DNA from: Pseudocercospora fijiensis CIRAD86
Lineage: Eukaryota > Ascomycota > Dothideomycetes > Mycosphaerellales > Mycosphaerellaceae
Length of the DNA stretch: 64,000 bases
NCBI RefSeq assembly: GCF_000340215.1
Contig: NW_006921538.1
Coordinates: 2,300,651 to 2,364,650, forward strand
Direction: 5' to 3'
The translations under genes were made by a program, and so were the position numbers. The notes beneath the pieces are model-generated. The model worked only from the letters and a program-made list of their open reading frames with translations, did no database searches and was not told the origin of the DNA. Each line of letters starts with the position of its first letter. Within the stretch, counting starts at the first letter, position 1. This document shows, piece after piece, positions 6,421-64,000 of this stretch.

Positions 6421-6620
6421 AACGACGGTTAATATAACAGTAATACACTTGAAACTATAGTACTACTAGTATATTCTAGTTTAGACCGAGTCGACTAATA
6501 CGACCGAGTCGACGAGTCGATAAGTATTGATATAGTACTATACGAATGGTATAAACACTACTAACGACTGCGACTGCGAGCGACCTAGAGCGATCCTATA
6601 TATATAAAAATTTACCGTAT

Positions 6621-6750
6621 CGATCCTATCGATCCTATCGATCCTAAGCGATCTAGGCACGAGTCGGGTCGCGACTCGGTCGCTTAGGATCGCTTAGGAT
6701 CGCTTAGGATCGCTTAGGATCGCTTAGGATCGATAGGATCGATAGGATCG
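6621..6750. repeat. Inverted repeat built of 10-bp units
   Basis: The left arm, 6,621-6,649, is made of CGATCCTAT and CGATCCTAAGC units. It is a perfect 29-bp reverse complement of 6,722-6,750. Between them lie an apex, CGAGTCG..CGACTCG (about 6,660-6,678), and four further direct copies of CGCTTAGGAT. Short subterminal repeats in both orientations are typical of CACTA-type transposon ends, which fits the Plavaka transposase upstream. That link is inference. Confidence 0.85.
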
Positions 6751-6779
6751 ACGCGATTAGAAAAAAAGTTTTCGTAACG

Positions 6780-8060
6780 AAGTGCCTACTAAAGTGCCTC
6801 CTACTAAAGAGCCTACTAGAGAGCCTATTAAAAAAGAACCTATAATTCTAGGTAATAATCTGGAATTGCCTGTTAACGACATTCTTAATAATATTGTTAA
6901 TCGACGATATAGCTAGCTAGCCTTTAGCCCTTAACTAGTAGGGAGACTTTAAGAAGCTACTTAAAACAGACTTACTGCCCTACGTTAAGAACAATAGCTA
7001 AAGGATAATCTCCTCGAGATTCGCCGCCTATAGGAAGCCCTAACAACTAGTACCGAGCCGATAATAGGGCCTTCCTTACTATTAGTCCTAATTCAAAAGA
7101 AGGATGCTAAGCTTAAGGACTATACCGTATTTAATAGCTCTAGCCGAAAGCAGTATAACGATTATATTCGTAACTATAAGCTTGACTAGCGCAATGCACT
7201 AAGAGCGCTACTAGACGACTATTCCTTAGTCGTACACGCTATACAGTATATTAATAGCGACCTAAAACGTATATAGGATAACTATTTTAATTCCCTTTAC
7301 GACTAGACCGCTATTTAATAGCAAGACTATAAGACCGTTATGCTAAACACCCTTAGAAACCCTATACTAAGGTAATAATATGCTTAGGACTAGTACCTTC
7401 GAGCTAAACAGAAGACTAATCAATCGGCTCGCTTATTTAAAGCCTATTTAAAGACCCTCGAAGATAACCTTCCGGCTAAAACCGACTCTATATAGATCTC
7501 CGAAATACGCCCTAAACTAAGGTAGGAGCTTGTCCTTAAATTAGACCGCCGCCGTGTGTTCGAACAGGCTAATCTTACGCGAATTCAATTTATAATCGAA
7601 GTAGAAACTATAGAGCGTATAGTATAGCTATAGTAACGGTTAGAATCTAAGATACGACTATCTACTAACCGTAGCCGCGGTAGAAACCAAGGAGGAAGTA
7701 CTCCCTAAACGAACACTGCTAATAATAGAAACAGTAACGACTACTAACGTAGAAGAGGTAGGGGCCGATACTACGGTAGAAACCCCTAGCGAGGAAGAGG
7801 GCAAGGAAGGGGCTCATTTCTATATACCCCTAATCGTTTATTAAATTCTAGCACTAATCCGAGCGGACCTAGCAGCGCCCTAACTAGATACAAGTGCTTT
7901 AATTATAATAGCACTACTCATTTACTAAGCTAATATAATAGGCCTCGAGACTAGGCCCGAGTCGATCGTACTACCGCCGAATACCGAAAGCGCCTCTTAG
8001 CCGCTAATGCTACCCCTATTAGCCCTTCTAACTATTCGAAAAAAGAATAAGCGCCGCACT
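6780..8060 (+). pseudogene. Gypsy-1 gag remnant with CCHC zinc knuckle
   Basis: A gag-like polypeptide can be followed through many RIP stops. The zinc knuckle near 7,890-7,935 reads C-F-N-Y-N-S-T-T-H-L-L-S-stop-Y, which is the CX2CX4HX4C pattern with two Cys turned to Tyr (TGC to TAC). A basic, Arg-rich stretch follows. Gag would form the nucleocapsid of the cytoplasmic particle. The gag frame and the pol frame downstream differ, consistent with a frameshift or separate translation. The N-terminus is not defined. Confidence 0.65.
8005..8021 (+). repeat. Truncated copy of the 25-nt palindrome
   Basis: TAATGCTACCCCTATTA lies between the gag zinc knuckle and the protease region of Gypsy-1. It has the outer parts of the recurrent 25-nt motif and lacks 8 nt from its centre and right arm. 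Confidence 0.5.
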
Positions 8061-11000
8061 AACTATTAGCCTTGTACGGCGTAAGACTATCGACATTGTG
8101 CTAGCTATTATACGTACCTGTCTCGTATCGGATACGTATAGAACTAACTACAAGACTAAGGTTACACTAGATCTAGGAAATTTAGTTAGTGCCCTTATTA
8201 GCTATCGCCTAGCTAAGCAATTAGACCTTCGACAACTGCCTAGGACTAACCTGCCAACCCTTGCTTAGTTTAATAACGCTCGGCACTTAACCTACGGAGC
8301 CTACTATATCTATATAGCCCTAAGAGACGACCTCGGTAATAAGCGCCTACTAAACTTTACTGCCTACGTAGTAGACATAGACAGCCTCCTATCTAACATT
8401 GTTATTAGCAACCCTGTTCTTAAGTACTATACTATAGTTATAGACTTAGGCAGTTAACAATAGCGATTTAGAATCGCTAGGAAAGAGGATATTAAACATA
8501 TCGATGTTAGCGAGTGCTCTAACGATATTAGGGTCCTGTTTATTAGCAACCTAATACTAGCCTCCGCCTTAGCTAATCTAACTGCCGATTTGCTCGGTAG
8601 TAATAACGATGAACCTATGCCCCCTAATAATCCTAATTAGCTTACTCGCACACTAGAGCCTATCCGAGAGACCTATATTAATGTGTTTGAACACTACCTA
8701 GCATCGATATTGCCTATGTTTAAAGAGACGGATTATAAGATTAATATTATAGAGGGCAAGGAGGTTCCTTTTAGTCCCCTCTACAACCTTAGTAAACGAG
8801 AGCTTACTATGTTACGTAAGTACCTAGAGGAAAACCTAGCTAATAGTCGCATTCGGTATAGTAACAGCCCTACTAGCGCCCCTATCCTATTCGTACTAAA
8901 GAAGGATAGTAGCCTACGCCTATGTGTCGACTATCGTAGGCTTAACGCTATTACTATTAAAGACCGCTGCCTACTCCCGCTTATTAATAAGACCCTTAAC
9001 CGCCTTTCTAGTACCTACTACTATACTATATTAGACATTAAGGACGCCTATTACCGCATCTGTATTCGCAAGGGCGATAAATAGAAGACAGCCTTCCGTA
9101 CTCGCTATAGCTATTTCGAGTACTTAGTTATACTATTTAGGCTAGCTAATGCCCCTATAACATTCTAGTCCTATATTAATCGGGCCCTTTCGGGCCTATT
9201 AGACTATCTCTGTATAGTTTACCTAGATAACATCCTAGTTTATACACATTTACCTAATATTGTAGAACACTAGGCTGTAGTACGTAAGGTCCTCGACCGC
9301 CTATAAGCCTATAGACTATATTGCAAACCTTCTAAATGCACCTTTGCTGCTAAAGAGGTATTATTCCTCGGCTTCCTCGTATTAACCGAGGGTGTTAAGG
9401 CTAATCCTAATCGGATTAAGACTATTACTAAGTAGCTAATACCTACTAGTATTAAGGAGCTTTAATCGTTCCTCGGCTTCGCTAATTTCTACCGCCGTTT
9501 TATTAAGGGCTATTCGAGGCATATAATACTATTAACTAAGCTTACTAAGACTAAGGCAAACCCTTCTAGAGAGTTCAGGTAGACTAACAAAACACAAGCC
9601 GCTTTTAACGGTCTAAAGAAGCGATTTACTAAAGTCCCCTTATTATACTATTTCGTACTAAGCAAGCAGATCCGAATTGAGACTAACGCTTTATAGTTCG
9701 CTATATCGGCTATTATGTCCTAGCAATCAGATAATAACTATTACTAGTACCCGATTGCCTTCTTCTCGCGGAAGATAATTAATGCTAAGCGTCGCTACGA
9801 GACCTACGAGCAAGAGCTCCTAGCTATTGTCGAGGCCTTTAAGTATTAGAGGCACTACCTCGATAGGGCTTAATATACAATATAGGTCTATATAGACTAT
9901 AACAACCTCCGTAGAATCACGAAGGTTACTAGGGTTATAGGTCGATAGGCTAGATAGGCCGTCTACCTCGCTAGGTTTAATTTTAATGTATTATATCGGC
10001 TAGGCGTAAGCAACCCTGCTAATAGCCTATCGAGGCGACCTAATTACGATAGCGAGACCTAACATATCAATTCTTTGTTTCTAACCCTGCAGTATAAGAT
10101 TGCTATAGCCCGTATTGTTAATAAGCAAGCGTAGGATAAGCGGCTTACCGGACTCCGCGACGGCTTAAAGCATATTAATACTCTTGCTATATTAATAGTG
10201 CGTGTTAAGGCAAGGGCTAAGGACACAGATAGGAGAAGTTATAATAACTCCCTAGTCGATATCGCTATATATAGTAATAGCGATTAAAGCACTAATATAG
10301 TTAATCCGGCTGCTAGTACTATTAGATATATATAATACGTACCTCGTTTAATAGCGAGGGTGCTATTAAATAACCTTGCAAATAGGGATAGTCAATCGTT
10401 TATAGATAAGCTATTACGTGCTTAGTAGTGGGACGCCTTTACTACTAAACGTATCGACAAGCTTGTAAGTAGGCGAAAGACTCGATCTAGCAAGAGTAAC
10501 AACAATTAGTCGATCGACGACAAGGGTTACTTAAAGTTTAAGGGTAGATACTATGTCCCCGCTAAACAATCGATTAGATAAGAGCTTCTTAAGCGATACT
10601 ATAATAGTAAGCTTGCCGGTTACTATAGTATAGAGAGGTCGCACGAGCTACTATCGCGTATATACTACTAGCTAAATAGTAAGCGGGATATAAAGGACTA
10701 CGTAAACACGTATGCCGTATACTAACGTATTAAGGCACTAAAGCATTAGCCTTTTAGCGAGTTGTCCTCTTTACCAATCCCTTACAAGCCATTTACAGAG
10801 CTTATAATAGACTTTATTATAGGCCTTCCGCCTGCTAAGCGTAGAGGTAGTAAGGACGTATATAATGCTATCCTTGTTATAGTAGATCGATTTACTAAAG
10901 GCGCTCGATACATCCCGGCGCGTAAGGATTAGACTGCTATTAATATAGTAGAGGCGCTATAGACTAACATCTTCTATACCTATTAGGGAACCCCTAAGGG

Positions 11001-37400: not shown

Positions 37401-37912
37401 GCTTTAGAAGACTTAAAGCAGGTATATAAAGAATTGCAAAGGGCAATTGCCGAGTCTTAAGAAAAGATTACGGGACTATATAATACTAAACGAAAAATAG
37501 TACCTTAGCTAAAAAAGGGGGATAAGGTCTACCTCCTAATAAAGAATCTAAAAACCCTAAGATCGACTAAGAAACTAGACTACGTTAAAGTCGGGCCATT
37601 TTTGATTAATAAGCCTAAAGGACTAGTTAATTACCGACTTAAACTACCGGACGATGCGAAAATCTACCTAGTATTCTATATCTCTATACTAGAACCTATA
37701 GACGCCGAAACACCGTACTAAGAAATATTTCACTTCTAACCTAAGGAAGAAAATAAGTTTAAAGTCGAGAAAATCCTAGACTAGCAAGGTTAGAAATACC
37801 TTATTAAATAGAAAGGATACCTACATTTAGAAAACACTTAGGAACTAAAAGAAAACCTATAGAACTGTTAGCAGATAATTAAAAAATATCAAAACCGGAC
37901 AAAAAAGAAATA
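34500..37912 (+). pseudogene. Gypsy-3 pol remnant (PR-RT-RH-IN-chromodomain)
   Basis: The protease has VLIDSGASGNF near 34,575, with the active-site DSG intact. RT follows from about 35,290: LVVDFRRLNDITIKNRYLLP, FRTRH.LYEFLVMPIGL and an intact YIDDILVYT near 35,680. RNase H has ETDASDRAIGACL near 36,120 and ALSRRSDY near 36,460. The integrase core includes DEVIIDFITKLPKS near 36,865, TDRDKLF near 37,080 and a TEVKN segment, so the three acidic catalytic positions can be seen. The C-terminal chromodomain (VEKILD..G.KYLIK.KGY) ends with KKYQNRTKKK just before the tRNA-like segment. Trp and Gln codons are widely replaced by stops. Confidence 0.82.
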
Positions 37913-37998
37913 ACTAGTATAGGAATTGAACCTACGACCTCTTAGACCCTATCGATTATAGCGCCTTAGAGTTCTTAACGACCTAGGGTAGTATAGCT
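37911..37998 (-). tRNA. tRNA-like sequence inside Gypsy-3, probable pseudogene (copy B)
   Basis: On the minus strand the last 25 nt form a T-arm-like GTAGG/TTCAATT/CCTAT followed by ACTAGTT and a discriminator A. The 5' end AGCTATA can pair with five of the seven acceptor bases. The total of 88 nt with a long variable region suggests a Leu/Ser-type origin. TTTCTTTTTT (37,910-37,901) could terminate Pol III. It starts directly after the pol stop and converges on pol. RIP prevents a safe anticodon call. Confidence 0.4.
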
Positions 37999-38149
37999 CG
38001 AGGAGCGGGGACTCTAATAGCGTACCTAGTAACTATGTCTTTTATAGCTAAGAATTATACTACTAGACTAACTAGCTAGAAGATAAAATAGATAGGAAAC
38101 ATTAAAAATATATACCTTTAGGACACTAGACTCTCGGCACTCCTACTAG

Positions 38150-41554: not shown

Positions 41555-44500
41555 CTATCTCGCCATACTCGCTTGCACGTTTCGTGGACTTCCTTGCACC
41601 TGTCCCATCGATCCCGGACTCTGCATGCCATTGCTGCTCATAGCGATGCCACTACCATTTGAGTTGATACGCTGCATTTGCGGTGTGTTTGACCGAGAGG
41701 ATGGTCGTTGCCCATTCATGTTTTGCATGCCCGCCATCTGCATATTCGCGTACTGCATCGAAGGCGACCCAGGCGTCATGTTCGGACTTGCGTGCGCCAC
41801 TCCAGGACTGCCGTTGAGCTGCGCGTGCACCGCGTTCGGGCTTTGCATCTGCATCTGTTGCATCATTTGCATTTGCTGCATTTTCATCCTTTGCGCGTAC
41901 TGCTGCGTCTGATTCGGACTTGCGTTCTGTCCTTGGGGCGACATGCTTGATGCACTCTGCTGCTGACTTCCATCGCCGTTCATATTGACTTGATTGTACG
42001 TGCCATTCATGCCATTAGACATCGGTCGATTGTTCTGGTATGCTGTATGTTTGTGAGCAAAAGCACATTAGCGATACGTGTTGATAGACTGACTATTTAT
42101 ACCGGCAGCAGCAACTGTCGCATTCTGCCTGGCCTGCTGGGAAGCGGCAGCAGAACGCTGTTGCAAGTGCTGACTGGCCAAGATTTTCAGTTGATCCTCC
42201 GACAAATTTGGATGTGAAGATCTGAGTTGGCTCGTGATCTGTAAGATTTGCGGGACGTGACCGGATGAAAGCTGCTGTGGACCGTTACTGCTTTGCGGCG
42301 TTGGAGGGGGTGGCATGCTGGGCGAGGCGATCATCTGTGTGTGCTGGCCGAGATTCTGGTTGTTGATCCCGTTCTGCTGCTGCTGCTGCTGCTGCTGCTG
42401 CAAGGCTTGCAGCAAAGCTTGATTGGTTTGCAGGTGCTGCTGAGTCGTCAAACCGCTTCCCGGGCTGGGCATGCTTCCGTTCGGCATCTGGTACTGGCCT
42501 GCGTATGGAGCGGCCATCATTTGTGGGTTGCTCTGCTGTTGTCTGGGTTGCATGCTTGGGTTGCGCATTTGTGCCGCTGCGGCTTGCATCTGTGCTTGCT
42601 GAGGCATATTGGCACCATTGACTGGCGGTGCCAAGAGTCCATGCCTGGTGGCGATTTGAGCTTGTTGTCGAATTTGCTGCTGAGCCGCGACTTTTCCAGC
42701 TTGATTGGGCATTTGCTGTCCGTTCGCTTGCATTTGTGCTTGTTGTGCGGGCATGTTGGCACCTGGAGGTCGTTGTTGTCCCGGTGCTGCGTTGGGACCA
42801 GGCTGACCACCTTGCTGTGCTTGAGCCTGAGCTGCCCGGGCCATCTGGATTTGCCGTTGCTGAGCCTCAATGATCTTGGCGCGATGCTGTCTTTGCGCTT
42901 CGGCAATTTGCAAGTCTCGTTCGTGGCGCTTCTTGCTAAACTCTTGAGGTGTCATCTTGACGCGTTGTGTCTGGGTGTTTTCGGTTTGTGACTTTCGTTG
43001 AGCTGCAGCGCGGGCGGTTTCAGCTGCTTTCCACTGTGCCTGCTCCTTCTTCTTCGCCAGCTTCCTGAAGCCCTCGACCATCCATAAGTATCTCGTCGAT
43101 CGTCGCTTCTCGACACGTGTAGGCATTGACCTGCGACGCATAGGTACATGCGAAGGTCCACCATTTTGCGCTGCTTGGGCTTGAATGGCTTGAACCTGGG
43201 CTTGATATCGGCGCTCGGATGCCTGGTGGGATTGCTCAAGCCGTTGATACCACGTCTTGAAGTATACCGTCTTCTTCATGTCGGCAGGCAATGACTCCAG
43301 CTCGACCCATCGTTCAAAGCATTCCCACGGCGTGCGACGTTCGGCAGAGCTCTTATATCGCGTCGGAAGTGCCATCTCATCCGCAATAAGAGACCAATTG
43401 AACGAGTAGTCTTTGGCCAGTCTGCGCAACTTTTGATCGTCTTCCCATATCCACTGAGATCCGTTTCTAAACTCGTAGAAGTGAGTTGTCGGCATGAGGA
43501 ACTCTGAAGGAGGTCTGAAAGCGTTGTTCGCATGCAGTCGATCGCGAATGTGCTTGTTGTCCGGATGGAACAGCGCGCATTCTTGGTCTTCTGGAGGCAG
43601 GTCTTCACATAATCGCTTGCTGCTGCGAGGGTGATGTGCCGCTACTTCAGCCTCATCTTCGTATTCGTATCGACTTCGCTTGCGGGAAGGACCACGCACG
43701 CGTGGCAGAATCTTGCCTTCAACAAACTTCGAAACTGGCGTCTCGGGCTGTACCCTGTGCTGGCGCGAAGGCTCGAGAAAGCCAGTCTTCGGAAGTGCAT
43801 CTACGGCTTTGGAAAGCTTACCACTCCGTTGCAGATCCTCCACGACACCAGTAAGCTCGGGCGGCACGACGAGAGTGATCGGTATTGGCGATTGTGAGCG
43901 AGGCGTTCGTGGACTGACATCATCCTCAGATGCTGAGTCACCGGCGTTCTCGAGGTCTGGTGTTCCATTACCAGCGTTCGCATCCTCGGCCTTTACCTTG
44001 ACTCGTAATTTTTGCTTCTCTGCGGCACTTGCGTGATAGTAATCTGCACATCTTTGCGCCAGCCATGCACACACGCTCTTCTTCATCTTTCGCTCAGCTC
44101 TGAAATCTTTGCGCATCCATTTCATTTCTTCCATCATGTGATCATGATGTGTGAAAGGCTGCTCAGGCTCCTTTGCCTTTTCCATCTGACGAAGCGACCA
44201 CTTGTTGGCGTTTTGTAGCTGATATATGCGTCGGAGCATTCGAAAGTCCAGCCGTTCATGCAGAGAAGTGAAGTGGTCTTCCGTCGAAAGTGCCTTGGAT
44301 CCATTTCTGATGAGGTCGGGAAGAGTTTTCGTTTTGGAGTTGGGCGACTCATGAGCTTGGATCCTGAAGAGCGGCTCGAGATAGTCGCGATCAGGATCTT
44401 CTGCTGCGCCTTTGAGGGATTCTAGTTGTGCCATAGCAGAGTCAACTTGACTTGGTTGTCGGAAGTGATTGAGAAGGCGCGGCTGATGTGAAGTCTGCGT

Positions 44501-46246
44501 GGCGAGCGGTGCTCTGACGCGAGTACTGGCAGCATCTTGCGGATGCCGTAGCGTCATGGGAGACACGGCTTCTGGCGAGAGAATGGCATCCTTCCGCGCT
44601 TGAGAGCCATTTTCAGTAGAGTGTGATCTGTCGCGGTCCTGTCCAAGTATTTCCGAGACCGATTTTTGTCGCATGGCACCAGACGAGACTCGAGTCGTCA
44701 TCCGTGGAGGCCGAGGCGCAGCTGGCGAAGACTGCTTCTCCGTGAGCGCGGCGGGTGCTGCCTGCTTCTTGTCAACTTCTGAAGGTAGTGCCCTCACAGT
44801 AGACGTGACAATGCTATTGTCGGTATCACTCTCAGGTTTAATTGGCGGTGCGGGCCTCGCATCGGGCAACTCTTCGTCGGGCTTTGTCTCAGCAGTGTCG
44901 ACGACATTACTCTCAGCCTCGATCTGTTCAACTGCTTGCTCAGCCTCGGTGGAATCTCTTGCGAGCTTCGAAGTAGGCTCAGGGCCGCCTACACTCTCCC
45001 GAGCTGCGCGCTCTTCTGCTTCTCGAGCTGCTGCCTCGCGTTCCTCCCATTTGAGCTGCTCGTCTGGCGTCGCGACATCCCCAAGCGCTTGCTTTCGTGC
45101 AATCTCTTTCTGGGCTTCCAATATGCGATCGTGCTCCTCCTTCTCGCGCTGCTGCTGCGGAGATGGCTGGAGGTCCTTGGGAGGCAGAACTTCAACTTGC
45201 GCAGTTTCCGAGTCGGGCGACGTGTCGGGACTATCCTGCGGAGGCTGTGGAGTCGCAGCTGAGTACGCCCCAACGGTAGACGAAGGGGAAGATGCGATAT
45301 CGGGTTGAGGCGCGACTAGACGTTGACCAGACTTGATCTCCGGTTCAGAGCTACGTCGCACTTCCTCCGCTTCTCGTTCGCGCAACCTCTCTTCTTGGAC
45401 TTCCTCCGACGGCAGGGGAACAACTTTAGCTGGAGTAGAGGGCTCTTGCTGGTCGACAAGTTGCTCGGCAGTCTCAGACAAGCGCGCTTCTTCCTCAGGC
45501 TGTGGAAGTGCTGCGTTGGCTGGCGACACGTCTTCTGGTTGAGCAGAGGCCTTGCGAGAAGCAGGAAGCGAAGCAGATGCATCAGGAATAACATTTGGTG
45601 GGCCAGATGCAGGGGTTTCCGAAGTAGAAACGGTGACAGGGTCAGCAGAAGTCGGATGGTCAGGCTTCGCGGTCACAATGCATGGTGTCGGCGTCGCAGA
45701 AGCACTTTCGACATCCGCCGCAGGTCGAGATGATTCTGCAGGTACACTATTGGGTTTCTCGGTAGATATGGACGCGCTATTGTCGTGTTGTTGTGTCGAT
45801 GTTGATGATGCGGGTCGAAAGGTCAAGGCCGCGGTCGCGTCACTTCTCACTCCGCCTTTTGACTTAGACCACGAGCCAACGGGAGATGAAGCGGAATTCT
45901 TACAAAAATACCACTTGTCCACGTATGTTGATCTCCTTCACCTTCTGCTTGCCACGCTAATCTTCGAAGCGGACGTGCATCCGACGCGACCGCGGCCTTG
46001 ACCGAGCGCGGTGACGTTGTAGAGGGCGCGCAGATTGCGACGATGTGCGTCGGCGAGGGAGAGCTGTTCGAAGCATCAGAACACACGCATTTCTCGCGAT
46101 AGCATCGTGAGAATTGGACAGTCGATGGAGGATAGGCGTAAGATGGCCGTGTGTGAATATGGAGAGTATTGCAGCAAAGGGCCACTCACCAACTCATGCC
46201 GCCTTTTCTCGGTCTCGATCAGGCGTCGGCTGTCGAGAAGGGACAT
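41555..46246 (-). CDS. EAF1: Chromatin modification-related protein EAF1/VID21 (carries an inverted segment)
   Basis: EAF1/VID21 is the scaffold of the NuA4 histone acetyltransferase complex in the nucleus. The main exon, 45,820-42,103, encodes an acidic Ser/Pro/Glu-rich region, an HSA domain (about residues 580-640 counted from 45,922, EPEQPFTHHDHMMEEMKWMR), a SANT/Myb domain (about 820-880, WIWEDDQKLRRLAKDYSFNW) and a Gln-rich tail with a Q10 run. A 60-nt intron (42,102-42,043) leads to a last exon, 42,042-41,555, rich in Met/Gln/Asn. Upstream, 46,246-46,190 (MSLLDSRRLIETEKRRHEL) and 46,063 onward (ADAHRRNLRALYNVTAL) match the conserved N-terminus, joined by a 126-nt GTGAGT intron. Between them 45,842-45,982 is inverted (separate entry), so the present strand lacks the conserved EAF1 segment there. 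An ATG at 45,922 would give an in-frame but antisense-derived start. Function of this allele is uncertain. Confidence 0.88.
45821..46003. other. Micro-inversion in EAF1 between 21-bp inverted repeats
   Basis: 45,821-45,841 (begins GGTCAAGGCCGCGG) and 45,983-46,003 are perfect 21-bp reverse complements. The 141 bp between them, read on the plus strand, opposite to EAF1, encode LLTPPFDLDHEPTGDEAEF then LQKYHLST. They also contain a 47-nt intron with GTATGT, CTAAT and a final AG. Splicing it gives ST-GR-ASDATAALTF, which continues in frame into the EAF1 main exon. Confidence 0.85.
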
Positions 46247-46638
46247 GAACTTGTCGCGAAGAAGGGCGCCGCATCTGCTATTCAATGAAGAACAACAGAC
46301 GACGGCGACGCGCTGCAAGCGTGCGTGTGCGAAGAATGTTGCGGCGGAGTTTTGCGAATCACGTCGGCCGTTGTGTAGCCCGTCGTCGCCCTCGTCGCTG
46401 CGTCGTGCGGTTGCGGATGTGCTGCAGTCTGCTGCGCTTGGCTTGGGGGTTCTGGAGAGATTCCAAGCGGCCGCCAATCACGCTGCCCGCTGCCCACTCG
46501 CCCCAGCAGGCCTCTCCGTTGGCTGCAAGCTCGCCAGTCACCCGTTCTGCCGCAACCTTCAGAACGCTCGAAAGCATCAAATTTTCACGTCGTTTGCACA
46601 GCACAGCGAGAAAGAAGAGCTGACCGTATATCGATGGT
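46247..46638. promoter_or_regulatory. Divergent intergenic region between EAF1 and the MAK11-like gene
   Basis: The two genes are transcribed away from each other, so these roughly 390 bp must hold both core promoters. I see no TATA box or binding site that I would name. Confidence 0.5.
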
Positions 46639-48145
46639 ATGGCGACTGCGAACGGAGTCAAGAGAAAGCGCATCGACGTGGCCGCCAGCGCCAAGCCCGT
46701 CAAAAAGCAGGCCGTCGAGCCCCCAAAGTCTTCCCAAGCCAACGGACACGGCAGCTCTGCTCCCATACACCTCCACATCGTCACAGGCAGCTATGAGAGG
46801 ACCCTACACGGCATTGCAGCAACCATCCCGCCTTCCGCCTTCCAGTATGTGGCAGTATGCTGCTTTCTCGGGCAATGACTAACGACCGCATAGTGGCACA
46901 AACGATGACGAGACCGTCGAGTTTCACGACACATTCCTGTTCGCCGCACATGCTTCAGCGATCCGCTGTCTGGCCATTTCTCCTGCCGGCAAGGAGGCAG
47001 ATAAGCGCTTCTTAGCAACTGGCTCCTCGGACGAGCGCATCAATGTCTACAGCTTGTCGACGGCGCCACCACCCAAACCCGCTTCCAAGCCGAATTGGCC
47101 TTCGCTGTCTGGTGCGGCCACTGCAGAGAATCCTCGGAACAAATCTCTCGGAAGCCTGCTACATCATGACCGTGCAATTACCAGGCTTCATTTCCTCGAC
47201 AAGAACCGACTCTTCAGCGCAGCCGAGGATGCTACGATCTGTATATCAAGGACTCGTGACTGGACTGTACTTACATCCCTCAAAGCACCCATCCCAAAGC
47301 CCCACGGACGCCCATCCGGAGATACTGCAGGCCCTGGCGAGATACCAGCCGGTGTCAACGACTTTGCCATTCATCCTTCACAAAAGCTGATGCTTACCGT
47401 CGGTCGTGGCGAGAAGTGCATACGACTGTGGAATCTGATGACAGGAAAGAAGGCGCAAGCACTAAACTTTGAGCGGGAACTACTGTCTCAAGTGGGCGAG
47501 AGCAAGTTCAGTAGCGGCGAAGGACGGCGTGTGACCTGGGATCAGGCTGGCGAGAACTACGTGGTCGCGTTCGAGAGAGGTGCGGCTGTCTTTGGCATTG
47601 ACTGCAAACCGAAAGCAGTAATCCAACCTGGCACGAAGATCCATCAGATGAGATTCATGCCACCCGAACGAGATGAAGATAGCATACTGGCAATCTCAAC
47701 CGAGGACGGTCGCATACTTCTTTATGATCTAACCCACATTGCTGAAGCCTCAGATGTCAAGAAACTACGACGATTGCAGCCTGATGCACAGATTGGAGGT
47801 CAAGCAGCTGGAGTGCAAGGCCGAATCAAGGACTTTGAGGTGGTTGAGCTGGCGGAAAATGGGTCTCCTTTGGGGCACAGGCTCGTTGTGACAGCGAGTA
47901 GCGATGGTGCAATTCGACTATGGAGTCTTCCTCATGGCTGGGCAGGGGATCTGCTGAAAGACCCAAAGCCTGCAACTCCCATACAAGTTGCAAAGTTGCT
48001 GGCAACCAAGGAGGCGGGAAATCGTATCACTTGTCTAGGCGCTTTCTTGCTCGATGGTCAGCACTCTGCCGTTGAGGAAGCGACGGATGATATGGCAGGC
48101 GCTGAGATCGATGGAAGCGAAGAATCCGAAGACGACAGCGAGTAG
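46639..48145 (+). CDS. MAK11: MAK11-like WD40 protein (60S ribosome biogenesis)
   Basis: Two exons, 46,639-46,844 and 46,894-48,145, are separated by a 49-nt intron with GTATGT donor, GACTAAC branch site and TAG acceptor. Together they give 485 residues in frame. The N-terminus is basic and Lys-rich (KRKRIDVAASAKPVKKQAVE), as for a nuclear/nucleolar protein. WD40 blades follow: LATGSSDERINVYSL, LFSAAEDATICISRTRDW, MLTVGRGEKCIRLWNLMTGK, ILAISTEDGRILLYDL and LVVTASSDGAIRLWSLP. The C-terminus is acidic. Yeast Mak11 and human PAK1IP1 have this layout and act in maturation of pre-60S particles. The start was chosen because it opens the frame of the basic N-terminus and lies just after the divergent promoter. 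Another WD40 subfamily is possible but less likely. Confidence 0.8.
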
Positions 48146-57559: not shown

Positions 57560-58040
57560 CTAGCTCTTGAGTATACCGGTATCTAGCATGTCTGCATCCT
57601 TCGACCACCTCTTCACCTGTATCACTCTACACCAGAACCACCCAGCTCGACAAAGGCGAAAGTCCGGCAAGAGAGCTCGAGACTTTTCCCAGAACTTGCC
57701 ATCTTGAGTAAAGATGCCATCGCCGAGCAGCGGCGCAAACACAAGTCGACGTTCGCCGAGCCCGAAGTCTGTGTGCAACTCAGATCACTATGCTACCATA
57801 GGATCAGAGATAGGACTGACCGGTGAACTGCTTGCTAAGAACAGCCTCGGTGTTCACTGGATCCACGGTATCGATGCCACGAAACCCTAGCAGCTTTTGC
57901 TCGAAAGTGGGCCCTGTCTTTTCGACAATTTCGAGCATCAGTCGGAGCAATCGCTGCTCACTGGCTGCACGGAAAGCTTTGGTGATCAGCTCAAGCCCCA
58001 AAGGCCACCGGCCGTTGTCGAGTGTCGGTGGATTGGATCC
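57560..58040 (-). pseudogene. Cytochrome P450 fragment (CYP52-like), part 1
   Basis: On the minus strand it reads NPPTLDNGRWPLGLELITKA ... GFRGIDTVDPVNTEAVLSKQ-FT, then a 62-nt intron (GTCAGT...CACAG near 57,800-57,740) and [34 protein letters not shown]. This is the N-terminal third of a CYP52-type P450, membrane-bound heme enzymes that hydroxylate alkanes and fatty acids. After ALL the similarity is lost, and the heme-binding two thirds are absent. Upstream, the gene is cut at the Copia insertion site (58,040) and continues at 63,400. It was probably already a truncated pseudogene when Copia arrived. Confidence 0.75.
58036..58040. repeat. Copia target site duplication, left
   Basis: GATCC, matched by GATCC at 63,400-63,404. 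Confidence 0.9.
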
Positions 58041-58169
58041 ACTTGGAGTGTGTGTCCAGGTGTCAGGGTCCATCACGTGCCTGATGCCTGAGGCTGCAAC
58101 TGCTGCACTTTATCTTCGGACTTCCAGATAGATTAGTCCTTCTTCCTAATTACATCAGTTACATCAAGT
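58041..58169 (+). repeat. Copia 5' LTR
   Basis: 129 bp, ACTTGGAG ... ATCAAGT. It differs from the 3' LTR at three sites, all C/T or G/A. Confidence 0.92.
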
Positions 58170-58529
58170 AGTTATAAGCCCCCTACGTTTCTAACGCATT
58201 CTATACGTATTCTAATAGTTAATCCGACTGCTACGTAGATAGCGCTCGTTACTAAAAATTGCGCCGATACTATTATCGTCGCCGCTATCCTCGCCGCCCT
58301 TAAGTGTTCTAGCAGGTGCTAGTCCGACTCGAGTCGGTTACTATCCGTGTTAGCTGTCCGCTATACTAGTTCCTAATAATAGTGTCGGCTATCCGCTATA
58401 CTAATACAATAAAGGCGCGCCTATCGGCGGCCTCTTAAGACAAGTCTATAGTCTCTTTCTATATCGCCGTCGCTGTCCGTAATAGCTCCCCCTACAACTA
58501 CTAACGCTTATATAAGCAACATCCCTAAG

Positions 58530-59440
58530 CTAAAGAACAAGGAGAATTATCTAGTATAGGCCTACGCCGCTAAAGGCGCTCTTAAAGGTATGTCGGTATA
58601 GCGCTATATATAAGGCACCCGCTAGCGACCCCTTTCTAAGGCCTCTAGTAAGTCTTCTAAAGAGTTTAAAGACCGCTAAGATAAATAGGACTCTAAAGAT
58701 CAAACAGCGCGTACCTAGATCTTTGCTAATTATATTAGTAATATTTAACAATTACTGCTTAGTCTATCTACATCCTAGGAAGTATAGGACTTCCTTAAGA
58801 AGAAATATACTAGTAAAGGTAGGTCTACTAAATTCATGCTCTACTAGGAATATATTACCCTTCGGTATAATAGCAAGGACATTAAGAAGTTCTATAATAA
58901 GTACAAGAAGAAGCTTAGTGCCTTAAAGGATACTAAATTAGCTATTAGCTAATACTAGGCTGTCTATATGTTTATTATATAGATCTCTCTATTCTACGAG
59001 GCTTTCGTATAGATGCGCCGTAAGCAAATGCGCGCCTCGGAATACACTATTAATAACAGTACCCTTAACAACATTATTAGCGCGTTACTTAATAAGAATG
59101 TAGCTTAATTGAACTAGGCCTAATACAACGGCTTCTTTGGCCTTTAGCGCTAACTACAACAATAAGGTAGTAATAGCAATAACAACGGTCGAGGTAACTC
59201 GAACCGTAGCGGTCGTAGTAGCCGCGGAAACAACAATAGTCGTAGTCGTAGTGGAAACAACTAGAATAGTTAGAATCGTAAGAAGTGCTTATACTGCTAA
59301 GGCGCTTACCTATCCGATCGGTGCTATACTAAATACCCTTACCTAAAGGAAGAAGACCGTCTTCGTCGCGAGAAGCAGAAGGCTAAGAAGAAGCAATAAC
59401 AGGCGTTAACTGCTTAGTAGCAATAGCAACTACTATCTAG
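58530..59440 (+). pseudogene. Copia gag remnant
   Basis: The frame begins with LKNKENYLVQAYAAKGAL-like sequence (one stop read as Gln), followed by KFMLY.EYITLRYNSKD and IKKFYNKYKKKLSALKDTKL, typical of a Copia gag. A Gly/Asn/Ser/Arg-rich linker (about 59,160-59,270) leads to the zinc knuckle C-L-Y-C-x-G-A-Y-L-S-D-R-C near 59,285-59,325, with the His changed to Tyr. A Lys/Gln-rich tail follows. Numerous TAG/TAA stops make it non-functional. Confidence 0.75.
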
Positions 59441-59470
59441 TTAGAATAGTACTTAGGGCCTATATACGGC

Positions 59471-59495
59471 TAATGCTACCCCGGGGGTGTTATTA
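59471..59495 (+). repeat. 25-nt palindrome between Copia gag and protease
   Basis: TAATGCTACCCC, then GGGGGTGTTATTA. Here it is read in the polyprotein frame as NATPGVLL, a different frame from the Gypsy copies. Confidence 0.9.
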
Positions 59496-59499
59496 GACC

Positions 59500-62400
59500 T
59501 AAACCACAATTACGCCTTTACTATAAACACTATAGTTACTATTAGCGACTAGGTTTCTACGGCTCTTACTGCTAGCACTCGTACTACTAATTAGGTTGTC
59601 GACTTAGGTACTAGCATATATATAGTTAACGACCCTTTATTACTTATTAAATATAAAGGCTGTTACATTCCTGTCCGGTTTAGTAGCAACACGAAGCACG
59701 CTACGATAGTTGGTATAGCTTAGACTGAGGTTGTTAATAAGCGTAGTGTAAGCAACATAAAGTTGTCCGATACACTATATATGCTAGGTCTAGTAGCTAA
59801 CCTCCTGTCTACTAAGAAGCTTGCCGATAAGGGCTGTTTCTATCGGAATAACAAGCGCGTGCTGTTTACTATTATTAACGGCTCGGAAGTTACTATTGCT
59901 TAGACATACCGTAAGAATAGTCTTCCCTACCTCTATATACCAACCTCTAGTCTAGATAGTAAGGTAGTTGCCCTTATATTAAAGAAGGGGGTGCCTAAGA
60001 AGGGGGTGCCTACAGGCACTATAGATAAATAGCATCTGCGATATAGCTATATTTATTACCGCAAGCTACTAAGGATGGAATCTGAGGGTCAAATTGTTAT
60101 TACTAGTACTAAGAAGGACTTCCGCAACTGTATTGCCTATCGCATAGCTATGTTATACAAGGAATACAATCGGCTGCTACGCGTACGACTATCTACGATC
60201 TATTACATTGTCTATGTAGATGTAGTTACTATTACTAATCCTAGTCTATTATAGGAGCGCTATTTCACACTGTTTATATGCGCCAAGTTAGGCTATCGAC
60301 ACGAATATGCTAGCACGCTTAAGTTAGGGGCTATAGTAGCTATTAAGGACTATCGTATATATGTCCGTACATAGACTAGCTATTCGATCCCAATCTACCG
60401 CCTCGATAGAGGGGGTGAATACAGCGGAAATCAGCTATTAAGCTAGGCCCGTAATTAGGGCATTGTACTGCAGGTTACAGCTCCTTATTCTTCTACTTAG
60501 AATAGCCTTACTAAGGTCAGCAATTACATCGTATACACGACTGCGAGAAAGATAATGCTGCAGGCTAACCTTCCTAAGTTCCTATAGCTATATGCTATTG
60601 CCTCCGCTATACAGGTCCTTAATATTACGCTAACCGCTAACGGAGGAAGCCTATATACTATTGTCGCTAAGGAGCTTAATTAGTTACGAACACAGCCGCG
60701 TCTTTAGCACCTTCGAGCCTATAGCTATACTGCTATTGTCTACGACTATAGTATAGCTCGTAGCAAGAAGTTTGACGCTCGTAGAAAGCTTAGCAAACTA
60801 GTTAGTTATACGAAGGGCTTAGTAGACTCTAGCAAATACATAATCTACTTGTCTAACGAATACAAGGTTGTTGCCTCGAAGGATGTCCAGTTTATTAAGT
60901 TAGAAGACGACAAGTTGTCGCTTCTAGAGGATATAAACCTATACGCCAATCCTAATAATCTAGCTAAGAACGAGTTTGTTACACTCGAGTCGGTTATGCC
61001 GGCTTTGTTTAATTCTATAAGCAACGAGGCTCCGTCGCCTGCCGAGGCTACTAGTATAGTCTAGCGTCTTCTAGCTTAGCAAGAAGAACAGCCTGTACAA
61101 GGACCTATACAGGAAATAGCTAATAAGGTCGCTAATCCATTACTAATCGATAACGACCTTCTAGACGTTCAACCACTAGCTTTAAGTAATAAAGATAGCT
61201 TTTAGTTAGCCGAGGAAGAGCTAGTATATAATCTAAACGCTAAGAAGGGCGAGCTAGGCTAGTTGCCTGAGTTTAAGCGACCAGCTGAAGCTGTTAGTAA
61301 TCGTTCTACGCGCAAGATACGGAGCAACAAGTCGGCTCGTAACCTATTGCGTAGCTATCTAGCTAATTGTAGTATTAAGCGGTCGACTCGACGCATAATA
61401 GCTAATATACCGATAGCCTATATAAAGGGCTTTATAGCTTCCTACTACATTGCTAAACAGCCTAATAAGCCTAAGGACACTATTCCTATTCCAAAGAGCT
61501 ACAAGGAGGCGACTTAGTCGCTATACTAGCTATAATAGAAGGAGGCCTATAAGGCTAAATACAAGTTACTAATCGACAACTATATATAGGTATATATATC
61601 TCGGTTAGAGGTGCTAGAAGGCAGGAAGGTTGTTCGTAGTCGATAGGTCTTTACTATTAAGCGTGACGCTAATAGCAAGGTAAGCCGGTTTAAGGCTTAA
61701 TAGGTCGTCCGTAGCTTTATATAGGTTAAAGGATAGGACTATAATAAGACCTATACGGCTGTAGCTAAGCCGTCTACGCTACGAGCGCTGTTTGCACTAA
61801 TCGCTTATTACGACCTAGAGGCTAAGCAGTATAATATTCTAACGGCCTTCCTTAATACGCTTATCGGTAATAAGTATAAGATCTACGTCGAACAGCTATA
61901 CGGTTTTAAGGACCGTAGTAGAAAGGGCATAGTTTGCCTATTACTAAAGGCACTATATAGTCTGAAACAGTCGCTAATGCTATAGTACGAAGAGCTTCGA
62001 AAGTACCTAAAGAGCCTAGACTTTGTGCTAATAATAGCTAATATGTGTATGTTTAAACACGTTATTAGCGGCTCTATTGTTGTTATCTATATCGACGATA
62101 TAATTATTATCGCTTATACTCTGTTAGCACTAGAGGCAGTAGCTTAGTTGCTAAAGGACCGTTTTAATATGCGAGAACTAGGCGACCTATACTACTATCT
62201 CGGTATGCGGATCATCCGTAACCGCGGTTAGCGCACTATTCACGTCGTTTAAGATGCCTATTTGAATAGGCTTAGTAAGAAATATAGTATGCGTAGCCGT
62301 ATCGGTCTAGCTACTCTAATAGCGCCTCGCTATATTAAGACGTCTATTTAACGCGCACCTAAGGGCTATATAGCTAGTGCCGCCTTTAAGACTTAGTATT

Positions 62401-63110
62401 AAGAAGGTGTTAGTAAGGCACTGTAGCTAGCTATAATTGCGCGACCTAATGCTTGCTATACTATAGGCCTATTGTTACGATTTATCTCTAACCCTACTAA
62501 AGAGCATTATGCCGCACTCCTTTAGCTGATTAAGTACCTAGTTAGTACCCTTAGTCGTAGCATGCGCTTCTAAGGCACACAAAACGATAAGCTCAATTTT
62601 GCTAGATACTATAATGCCTTATAGGCTAACGATCTAGTTACCCGCCGCTCTATAGGCGGCTTCTACTTTACTATTGCAGGCGGACCTCTATTATATAAGT
62701 CCGGCCGCTAGACACTCGTCACACTGTTATTAACTGAAGCTAAGTATATTTAACTTACTATAGGGGCTAAGGAAGCAGTTGCCTTAGCTCGCTTATTAAA
62801 GGAAATTGGCTATAAGGGCTATATTCTTCTAGTTACGCTCTATAAGGACAATTAGTCCGCTATTGCTATTACTAAGTCGACTAGCATTGATAGCCGTACG
62901 AAGCATATAGATGCTCGTGTTTACTATATTCGAGAGAAGATTGCTAATAGTACTATTATCGTCTAATAGGTTAGTATATATAATTAGATAGCCGATAGCT
63001 TTACTAAGCCGCTTAACAAGATCAAGCACGGCCGCTTTGTTAAACAACTGAACCTAGTAGATTGCAAGGCCGCTATTAAGAGCGCTATAAAGCTAGCTGC
63101 TAAGTACTAA
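59500..63110 (+). pseudogene. Copia pol remnant (PR-IN-RT-RNase H)
   Basis: The protease has VVDLGTSIYIVNDPLLL near 59,600 (a changed D-S/T-G site). Integrase includes HLRYSYIYYRKLL (GAG-pre-integrase) near 60,030 and RLDRGGEYSGNQL near 60,400. Open stretches lie at 60,849-61,064 and 61,263-61,517 in the linker. RT has TAFLNTLIGNKYKIYVEQLY near 61,840, ALYSLKQS near 61,950 and an intact YIDDIIII near 62,090. RNase H has TEAKYI.LTIGAKEAVALAR near 62,735 and DARVYYIREKI near 62,910. The order is that of Copia, with integrase before RT. It is inactive because of RIP stops. Confidence 0.85.
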
Positions 63111-63260
63111 GAAGAAAGAGCCTTTGTTTGCTTTGTCTGTTTAACCTGAGAGTGGTCTAGTTTGTTCACCTATTTCTGCTTACCTAATACCCCTGTTTGC
63201 TTCGCCAACTAAATAGCTATTGTGTTTGGTTTGCTTCATTCTATGGCGATATGCACGTGC

Positions 63261-63270
63261 TGAGGGGGTG
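63261..63270 (+). other. Copia polypurine tract
   Basis: TGAGGGGGTG abuts the 3' LTR. Confidence 0.85.
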
Positions 63271-63399
63271 ACTTGGAGTGTGTGTCCAGGTGTCAGGGTC
63301 CATTACGTGCCTGATGCCTAAGGCTGCAACTGCTGCACTTCATCTTCGGACTTCCAGATAGATTAGTCCTTCTTCCTAATTACATCAGTTACATCAAGT
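63271..63399 (+). repeat. Copia 3' LTR
   Basis: 129 bp, followed by the TSD GATCC (63,400-63,404). Confidence 0.92.
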
Positions 63400-63577
63400 G
63401 ATCCTGGCAGCCCTTTTGCGCGGCGAACGCAGCATCGGCCTATCGAATGTCAGGAGCTATCAACTTGGGCATTATTTCCGTCTCGCTCTATTTACATATC
63501 TGCCTTGCTCGTGCGGCGTTGTATGCCCGGCTTCCGATATATAGAGCCACGAGCCCGATTAAGAGTGGAGTCAGCAT
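63400..63577 (-). pseudogene. Cytochrome P450 fragment, part 2 (N-terminus)
   Basis: On the minus strand ATG 63,577 begins MLTPLLIGLVALYIGSRAYN, a P450 membrane anchor. It is followed by AARARQ and a probable 56-nt intron (63,495-63,440, GTAAAT...ATAG), then ADAAFAAQKGCQ, which matches the usual A-x-KHGC segment before the P-x-LP linker. Joining this to 58,040 with one TSD copy removed restores the order of a CYP52-type N-terminus but needs a 1-nt shift if this frame is right. So the gene may have been broken before the insertion, or the intron call is wrong. Confidence 0.6.
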
Positions 63578-63866
63578 GCTGTATAACGTTGAGAAGCTGT
63601 AGGAAACTGGTAGGGAGCCTCAGCTATCGCTCGAGGTCAGTCAGGAAGTCAGTGTGAGAGGCAGTTGGGCGTCGATTGAAAATACCACTGGGTGTAGAAA
63701 TGCTGCAGTGGTACTGGTATCTGGCCCAGTTGTTGTCCCATGTTTAATCAAGCTGAGCTGCTGCTAGGTGTGAATATCACCTTTACCTCACCTCACTCTG
63801 CTTCCCCAGCTATATGCTGTACCGTACGAACGATCTCTCATTCAGATAATTTTAAATTTGAATGTC
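63578..63866. other. Intergenic region
   Basis: Not RIP-mutated. It separates the P450 remnant from the next gene and should hold the 5' flank of the P450 remnant and the 3' flank of the thioesterase gene. No gene is seen. Confidence 0.5.
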
Positions 63867-64000
63867 TCACAGCTTCTCCTTAACCATAATAAACAAACTC
63901 TCAGCCTCAGCATAAACCTTCCCCTCCCCATCCTCCATCGTCCCTTTAACCCAAGCCTTCCTCCCCTCAAACCTACCACACCAACACCTCACCAAAACAA
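63867..64000 (-). CDS. Probable hotdog-fold thioesterase, C-terminal end (partial)
   Basis: On the minus strand the frame enters at the window edge and reads RCWCGRFEGRKAWVKGTMED, then GEGKVYAEAESLFIMVKEKL and stop (63,869-63,867). The pattern V-x-GRK-x-W-V-x-G-x-x-x-DGEGxVYAEAExLF is the last beta-strands of PaaI/THEM4-like acyl-CoA thioesterases, where the final strands close the hotdog fold. The catalytic part lies outside the window, so substrate and compartment cannot be judged. Confidence 0.65.
   Translation of the reverse strand, partial: VLVRCWCGRFEGRKAWVKGTMEDGEGKVYAEAESLFIMVKEKL

What the first reader, a model, noticed from the sequence alone, without database searches (positions are those of the whole stretch)
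45821..46003. Micro-inversion inside EAF1/VID21 flanked by perfect 21-bp inverted repeats
EAF1 is encoded on the minus strand, but the 141 bp at 45,842-45,982 make sense only on the plus strand. There they encode the conserved EAF1 stretch TPPFDLDHEPTGDEAEFLQK plus a canonical 47-nt intron (GTATGT, CTAAT, AG). Spliced, it ends in S-T-G-R and runs in frame into the downstream EAF1 exon (ASDATAALTF) once the segment is turned round. The flanks are 21-bp perfect inverted repeats. The left junction is off by one frame relative to RRNLRALYNVT, so the event may also have converted or trimmed one arm. Either this strain has a disrupted NuA4 scaffold, or the locus can flip by recombination between the arms, or it is an assembly artefact.
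Basis: partly seen in the sequence, partly recalled or inferred. Interest (0 to 1): 0.8.

Follow-up and report, generated by a model that had tools for sequence, protein, structure and literature searches.

The report
Small inverted segment breaking fungal EAF1
In the reference genome of a banana leaf-spot fungus, a 141-letter piece of a gene for a chromatin protein is turned round and framed by a mirror-image 21-letter copy, most likely left by a recent DNA-copying slip that cuts off the gene's start; the kind of slip is known, this one is larger than the closest cases found and breaks the gene.

Summary
Perfect 21-bp inverted repeats (45821-45841 / 45983-46003) flank 141 bp that carry a conserved EAF1 stretch and a 47-nt intron on the strand opposite to the rest of EAF1. 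A profile of 19 orthologues, run over 2569 six-frame pieces of the window, gives as its two best hits the minus-strand piece (profile 19-39) and the plus-strand piece (46-76). The species is Pseudocercospora fijiensis. The longest chance repeat in 200 surrogates was 14 bp. The right arm reads like orthologous EAF1 (DATAALT); the left arm does not, and it sits where orthologues have a fixed spacing. The left arm is best read as an inverted copy of the right arm, made with the inversion in one template-switch event. Recombination between older repeats is less likely; the frame is off in either orientation, which also argues against a switch. As written, EAF1 stops after 60 codons; a product from the next in-frame Met would lack the N-terminus, which holds TINTIN in yeast. 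Arm copying with spacer inversion is known in yeast.

The parts
45821..45841 (-). Right (downstream) arm, 21 nt, inside the EAF1 exon; encodes DATAALT in EAF1 frame; read as the original copy
   Evidence: Perfect partner of 45983-46003. DATAALTFR scores 28-32 against the homologous stretch of 3 of 19 orthologues (P0006, P0007, P0014); the best score in each of the other 16 is 16 or less.
45842..45982 (+). Inverted 141-bp segment: 81 nt of EAF1 exon, a 47-nt intron and 13 nt of the next exon, all on the strand opposite to the rest of EAF1
   Evidence: Profile hit 46-76 on the plus strand; intron and exon parts.
45923..45969 (+). 47-nt intron carried round with the inverted segment (GTATGT ... 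GCTAAT ... AG)
   Evidence: letters; no RNA seen.
45983..46003 (-). Left (upstream) arm, 21 nt; reads GQGRGRV in EAF1 frame; read as a new inverted copy of 45821-45841 that replaced about 26 nt (inferred)
   Evidence: GQGRGRV scores at most 14 (self 37) against the 19 orthologue N-termini, and by eye not at the homologous site; 19 of 19 orthologues have an ungapped stretch here.
46190..46246 (-). EAF1 exon 1 (start codon 46246-46244), 57 nt (my reading; no RNA seen)
46064..46189 (-). EAF1 intron 1, 126 nt, GTGAGT...AG (my reading; no RNA seen)
46004..46063 (-). EAF1 exon 2 up to the left arm (LSLADAHRRNLRALYNVTAL)
   Evidence: profile 19-39 hit.
45938..45940 (-). Premature stop met when exon 2 is read on as written (after 60 codons)
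42068..45841 (-). Main EAF1 body, open from the right arm onward, with HSA and Myb/SANT domains; a C-terminal intron follows and the gene ends at 41555
   Evidence: C-terminal intron and ...NVQASMAR end read by eye; stop at 41555 also.
44699..44701 (-). First in-frame Met of the downstream EAF1 frame (MTTRVSSGAMRQ), residue 413 of that ORF

Best explanation
A recent, single template-switch mutation in EAF1 of P. fijiensis. Replication left its template just after RALYNVTAL, copied the opposite strand backwards from the end of DATAALT through the intron to SLLTPP (about 162 nt), then returned to the original template at the start of DATAALT. This leaves an inverted segment, a new perfect inverted copy of the right arm, and loss of about 26 bp that encoded the conserved spacer. 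Shown: the layout, the strand of each piece, which arm resembles orthologue proteins, the frame mismatch. Inferred: the one-step copying mechanism, the order of events, the loss of about 26 bp, the youth of the event, and the outcome that this allele gives either no Eaf1 or an N-truncated Eaf1 that keeps HSA and SANT but lacks the region that holds TINTIN in yeast.
For: Opposite-strand pieces of one orthologue profile are the two best hits among 2569 pieces. The right arm is orthologue-like and the left arm is not. Orthologue spacing is ungapped in 19 of 19 kept rows; laid on the window it means 8 codons plus 2 nt = 26 nt against a 21-nt arm, so an ancestral left arm needs a further indel. Arms 21 of 21 identical, inverted exon open and its intron signals intact, the rest of EAF1 open: a young event. 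The same combination, arm conversion to a perfect repeat plus spacer inversion, is described for REG2 in yeast (PMC8604942, abstract and passages), and template switching often leaves perfect inverted repeats (PMC7954356, passages).
Against: No DNA of a close relative or second strain was available, so the pre-event sequence is inferred from proteins of other genera. The spacer (141 bp) is far larger than the 2-5 substituted bases reported for the yeast spacer inversions and the 17-33 nt of human-chimpanzee microinversions. The right-arm match is strong in only 3 of 19 orthologues by the ungapped test. The profile hits are short and of modest E-value. No reads seen.
Confidence: 0.66

Rival explanations
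1. Inversion by recombination or break repair between two inverted repeats that were already there, with a separate small indel that shifted the frame.
For: Perfect flanking arms are what such models need; [quoted passage not shown]
Against: The left arm does not read like orthologous EAF1 and its length does not fit the orthologue spacing; a second mutation is needed.
Confidence: 0.13
2. Cloning or assembly artefact in the reference: the living strain has a normal EAF1.
For: EAF1 gives one match in the genome and its loss gives severe growth defects in Candida albicans (PMC6089883, passages), so a broken copy in a reference strain is odd. Reads were not available.
Against: CIRAD86 was assembled from Sanger reads of 3-kb, 8-kb and 40-kb clone libraries (PMC4981457, passages), which I take to be longer than the 183-bp structure; loss of about 26 bp together with a templated inverted copy is not a usual assembly error (recalled).
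Confidence: 0.16
3. A reversible orientation switch that turns Eaf1 on and off.
For: Perfect arms around an invertible segment.
Against: The segment is out of frame with exon 2 in the other orientation too (phase 0 against 2). A recombinase or its site was not sought.
Confidence: 0.02
4. EAF1 is normally expressed from the letters as written by a new intron that skips the stop and part of the inverted segment.
For: 32 GT-AG pairs of 40-399 nt would keep an open frame.
Against: None of the 32 has a full GTRNGT donor or a YTRAY branch-like sequence in the part of the intron looked at.
Confidence: 0.03

Closest known systems
Template switching with arm homogenisation and spacer inversion in Saccharomyces cerevisiae genes (REG2 case; Abraham and Hazkani-Covo 2021, PMC8604942; abstract and passages seen)
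   Same: Coding gene, one arm converted to a perfect inverted repeat together with spacer inversion.
   Different: In the table rows I saw, arms of 10-16 bp and spacers of 2-5 bp, with amino-acid replacements; here 21-bp arms, a 141-bp spacer with an intron, and an interrupted gene.
Human-chimpanzee microinversions (PMC8755829; passages seen)
   Same: Short inverted segment flanked by inverted repeats.
   Different: 17-33 nt, most of them exact inversions, none overlapping coding sequence.
Intrachromosomal inversions behind mesosynteny in Dothideomycetes (PMC3516569; passages seen)
   Same: Inversions in the same class of fungi, this species among those compared.
   Different: Gene-block scale, breakpoints linked to simple repeats, not a templated inverted copy inside a gene.
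EAF1/VID21, NuA4 scaffold
   Same: HSA and SANT domains, MAK11-like neighbour as in relatives.
   Different: N-terminal coding part interrupted in this assembly.

Membership tests
EAF1/VID21 orthologue | HSA domain followed by Myb/SANT domain | tested here: met
   PF07529 (9e-11) and PF13921 (3.9e-12) in P0001; yeast EAF1 chains found in the PDB search.
EAF1/VID21 orthologue | Colinear N-terminal region on one strand | tested here: not met
   Profile 19-39 on minus, 46-76 on plus strand.
EAF1/VID21 orthologue | Adjacent to MAK11-like WD40 gene as in relatives | tested here: met
   MAK11-like ORF 46883-48145. By eye, nine genomes have EAF1 and MAK11 under consecutive locus numbers; one (Oleoguttula mirabilis, LTR36_007880 and LTR36_002244) does not, and JGI-style names do not tell.
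Template-switch mutation (four-point model) | Segment is the reverse complement of nearby sequence and leaves a perfect inverted repeat | tested here: met
   Perfect repeat; inversion inferred from the orthologue profile.
Template-switch mutation (four-point model) | One arm ancestral, the other newly made | tested here: met
   Right arm orthologue-like, left arm not; at protein level only.
Template-switch mutation (four-point model) | Ancestral DNA known, switch points placed by alignment | not testable with these tools
   No DNA of sister species or of a second strain was to hand.
Inversion by recombination between pre-existing inverted repeats | Both arms present, in frame, before the event | tested here: not met
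   Left arm not orthologue-like, 21 nt against 26 nt, frame off; protein-level inference.
Phase-variable invertible switch | One orientation gives a working reading frame | tested here: not met
   As written a stop after 60 codons; phase mismatch in the opposite orientation.
Phase-variable invertible switch | Both orientations present in the population | not testable with these tools
   Only one assembly held; one match in it.

The most novel reading that the evidence does not exclude
The inverted allele is not an accident of one culture but fixed in P. fijiensis or in Pseudocercospora, which then runs NuA4 on an Eaf1 that starts at an internal Met and lacks the N-terminal TINTIN dock: a chromatin complex rebuilt by one template-switch mutation. 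A weak hint is that no row named as EAF1 of four Pseudocercospora species appears in the lists, although their MAK11 neighbours are.
Probability: 0.07. Interest if true: 0.6.

Novelty: new member of a known kind. Interest (0 to 1): 0.36.

Why it matters
If real, it is a template-switch event larger than those in the papers I looked into, caught young inside a core chromatin gene, with arms and inverted exon still unspoiled, in the epitype strain of a major crop pathogen. It would show that this process can invert a segment holding an intron and interrupt a gene, and the existing cross CIRAD86 x CIRAD139A (135 progeny mapped, PMC4981457, passages) would let it be followed. If it is an artefact, the reference EAF1 needs correction, and gene models built on it would be wrong at the start.

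Tried and rejected
Recombination between older arms as the main explanation: second best because of the left-arm reading and the frame. A reversible switch: rejected on frame. A rescue intron: 32 open GT-AG pairs (40-399 nt, acceptors no further than about 45701), none with good signals. A second EAF1 copy in the genome: one match for the DNA and one for the protein. A C-terminal break: the stop at 42068 lies in what reads as an ordinary intron, by eye. Searches gave no hits because of a wrong hmmsearch option; one search is the valid run. A PDB search with an orthologue profile gave best stretches in the HSA and SANT parts and none at the N-terminus. One paper search on microinversion, fungal and inverted repeat listed three papers, none about fungal microinversions by title; I make no claim that such an event is not in print.

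Rows dropped: 333 protein records were held, the MAK11 proteins among them; a motif pattern picked 23, of which I kept 19 and left out P0034, P0068, P0109 and P0307 (the last a spurious match); by eye the first three have the same spacing. Many other EAF1 records start downstream and say nothing about this stretch (by eye, whose output was cut).

Full report
What is there. The window holds an EAF1/VID21 gene on the minus strand: exon 1 at 46246-46190, an intron of 126 nt, exon 2 from 46063, a main ORF to 42068 with HSA and Myb/SANT domains, what reads as an ordinary C-terminal intron, and the usual C-terminal end at 41555. Exon and intron borders are my reading; no RNA was seen. Inside it, perfect 21-bp inverted repeats at 45821-45841 and 45983-46003 enclose 141 bp. 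That segment encodes LLTPPFDLDHEPTGDEAEFLQKYHLS, a 47-nt intron (45923-45969) and 13 more exon bases on the plus strand.

Species. The neighbouring WD40 (MAK11-like) ORF is 100% identical over 98% of its length to MYCFIDRAFT_117612 of Pseudocercospora fijiensis CIRAD86. The window's genome has 73.9 Mb in 30 contigs, against 74.14 Mb in 56 scaffolds in print (PMC4981473, passages); its contig C7 has 4,693,605 bases, against 4,695,110 for the contig of that protein. I take it as the CIRAD86 assembly or an edited form of it. EAF1 and MAK11 lie side by side in relatives too: by eye, consecutive locus numbers in nine genomes, against one (Oleoguttula mirabilis) where they are not consecutive.

Is it more than chance? 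In 200 first-order Markov surrogates of the 18-kb gene island, the longest perfect inverted repeat with a spacer of up to 1 kb was 14 nt in 11 surrogates and shorter in the other 189; the island itself has one of 21, then 13. Of 20 sampled 10-kb stretches of the contig, 4 hold a perfect repeat of 15 nt or more with spacer up to 1 kb; two of those are GTAGCGTAGCCGG-type tandem repeats in AT-rich DNA, the other two have 15-nt arms; none of the 7 stretches with G+C of 0.50 or more holds one.

Is the segment really inverted EAF1? A profile from 19 orthologue N-termini was run against all 2569 six-frame pieces of 15 or more residues in the window. The two best hits are the minus-strand piece 45941-46075 (profile 19-39) and the plus-strand piece 45543-45998 (profile 46-76), E 0.0013 and 0.0077; the third has E 1.1. 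The scores are modest because the pieces are short. The minus-strand sequence after the right arm matches profile 87-133 (10.8 bits), and the inverted segment read on the minus strand matches nothing (-1.7 bits). The 19 orthologue proteins run through both stretches in one chain.

Which arm is old? Read in EAF1 frame, the right arm gives DATAALT and continues FR; this scores 28, 32 and 32 at the homologous place in Septoria and two Cercospora proteins (P0006, P0007, P0014), while the best score in each of the other 16 is 16 or less; by eye P0005 (DATLLAIRP) and P0019 (DSTALTLRP) also resemble it. The left arm gives GQGRGRV, which scores at most 14 against a self score of 37, and by eye not at the homologous place. 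All 19 kept orthologues have an ungapped stretch from RALL... to ...SL. Laid on the window this means 8 codons plus 2 bases, 26 nt, where the 21-nt left arm now stands. The phase after the arm is 0, the phase of the segment's first base is 2. So the left arm most likely replaced conserved sequence and shifted the frame, and the opposite orientation alone would not give a normal frame either.

Mechanism. One template-switch event explains all of it: leaving the template after RALYNVTAL, copying the opposite strand from the end of DATAALT back to SLLTPP, and returning at the start of DATAALT. It gives an inverted segment, a new inverted copy of the right arm, loss of the spacer, and no need for the frame to be kept. 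In the four-point notation the order along the gene would be 1-3-4-2 (my assignment); a switch between strands is then needed, since the template lies ahead of point 1 (a passage of PMC7954356 says so, its beginning cut off in what I saw). The closest case I found is REG2 of yeast, where one arm was converted and a small spacer inverted together (PMC8604942, abstract and passages). [quoted passage not shown] its authors prefer a break-repair model for many of them, which could also serve here and is not separated from template switching by my evidence. The present event is larger, carries an intron, and interrupts a gene.

Effect. As written, translation from the EAF1 start meets a stop at 45940-45938 after 60 codons; 32 GT-AG introns would keep the frame open, none with a full GTRNGT donor or a YTRAY branch-like sequence; the first in-frame Met afterwards is at 44701. 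In yeast the first 250 residues of Eaf1 hold TINTIN, the HSA region holds piccolo and the SWR1-shared module, and Tra1 still associates with the truncated forms tested (PMC5861120, passages). If a product from 44701 is made, loss of TINTIN from NuA4 is the prediction; otherwise the strain lacks Eaf1, which gives severe growth defects in Candida albicans (PMC6089883, passages). The event looks young: arms identical, inverted exon and intron intact, the rest of the gene open.

What could not be settled. CIRAD86 was assembled from Sanger reads of three clone libraries and CIRAD139A resequenced with Illumina (PMC4981457, passages); none of these reads is held here. Sanger reads should span 183 bp (recalled), which speaks against an assembly slip, but a cloning error or thin coverage cannot be ruled out. 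No row named as EAF1 of P. fijiensis, P. musae, P. eumusae or P. fuligena appears among the 120 rows listed (of 1349 matches; target lengths about 709-2256 aa) or the 120 listed (of 152; about 330-1050 aa), although MAK11 of these four is listed; the best identity is 74%. This could be missing, fused or split gene models, unnamed rows, or a shared defect; I cannot tell which.

Verdict. A real feature of the sequence, most likely a known kind of mutation of large size, private or recent, in a core chromatin gene. Interest is moderate.

Noticed in passing
window 1-40000 and 58000-64000: Two AT-rich stretches (G+C about 0.31-0.45) with tandem arrays flank a gene island of about 18 kb (G+C 0.51-0.56); only one stop-to-stop ORF of 150 aa or more lies in the first 40 kb, as one would expect of mutated transposon-rich DNA in this species.
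   Followed up: partly
window 37911-38077 (-): Rfam tRNA match (35.5 bits) of 167 nt in AT-rich DNA; ARAGORN reports no tRNA in the window.
   Followed up: no
window 6618-6751: A 34-nt perfect inverted repeat with a 64-nt spacer beside short tandem units of 9-10 nt.
   Followed up: no
L004:9141-9809, L006:1759-2415 and 7851-8507: GTAGCGTAGCCGG tandem repeats recur as inverted pairs with the same 575-nt spacing in three places, perhaps the ends of one repeated element.
   Followed up: no
window 41555-48145: EAF1 and the MAK11-like gene lie head to head; nine relatives show consecutive locus numbers and one does not (by eye).
   Followed up: partly
protein searches: No row named as EAF1 of four Pseudocercospora species is listed although their MAK11 proteins are.
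   Followed up: partly
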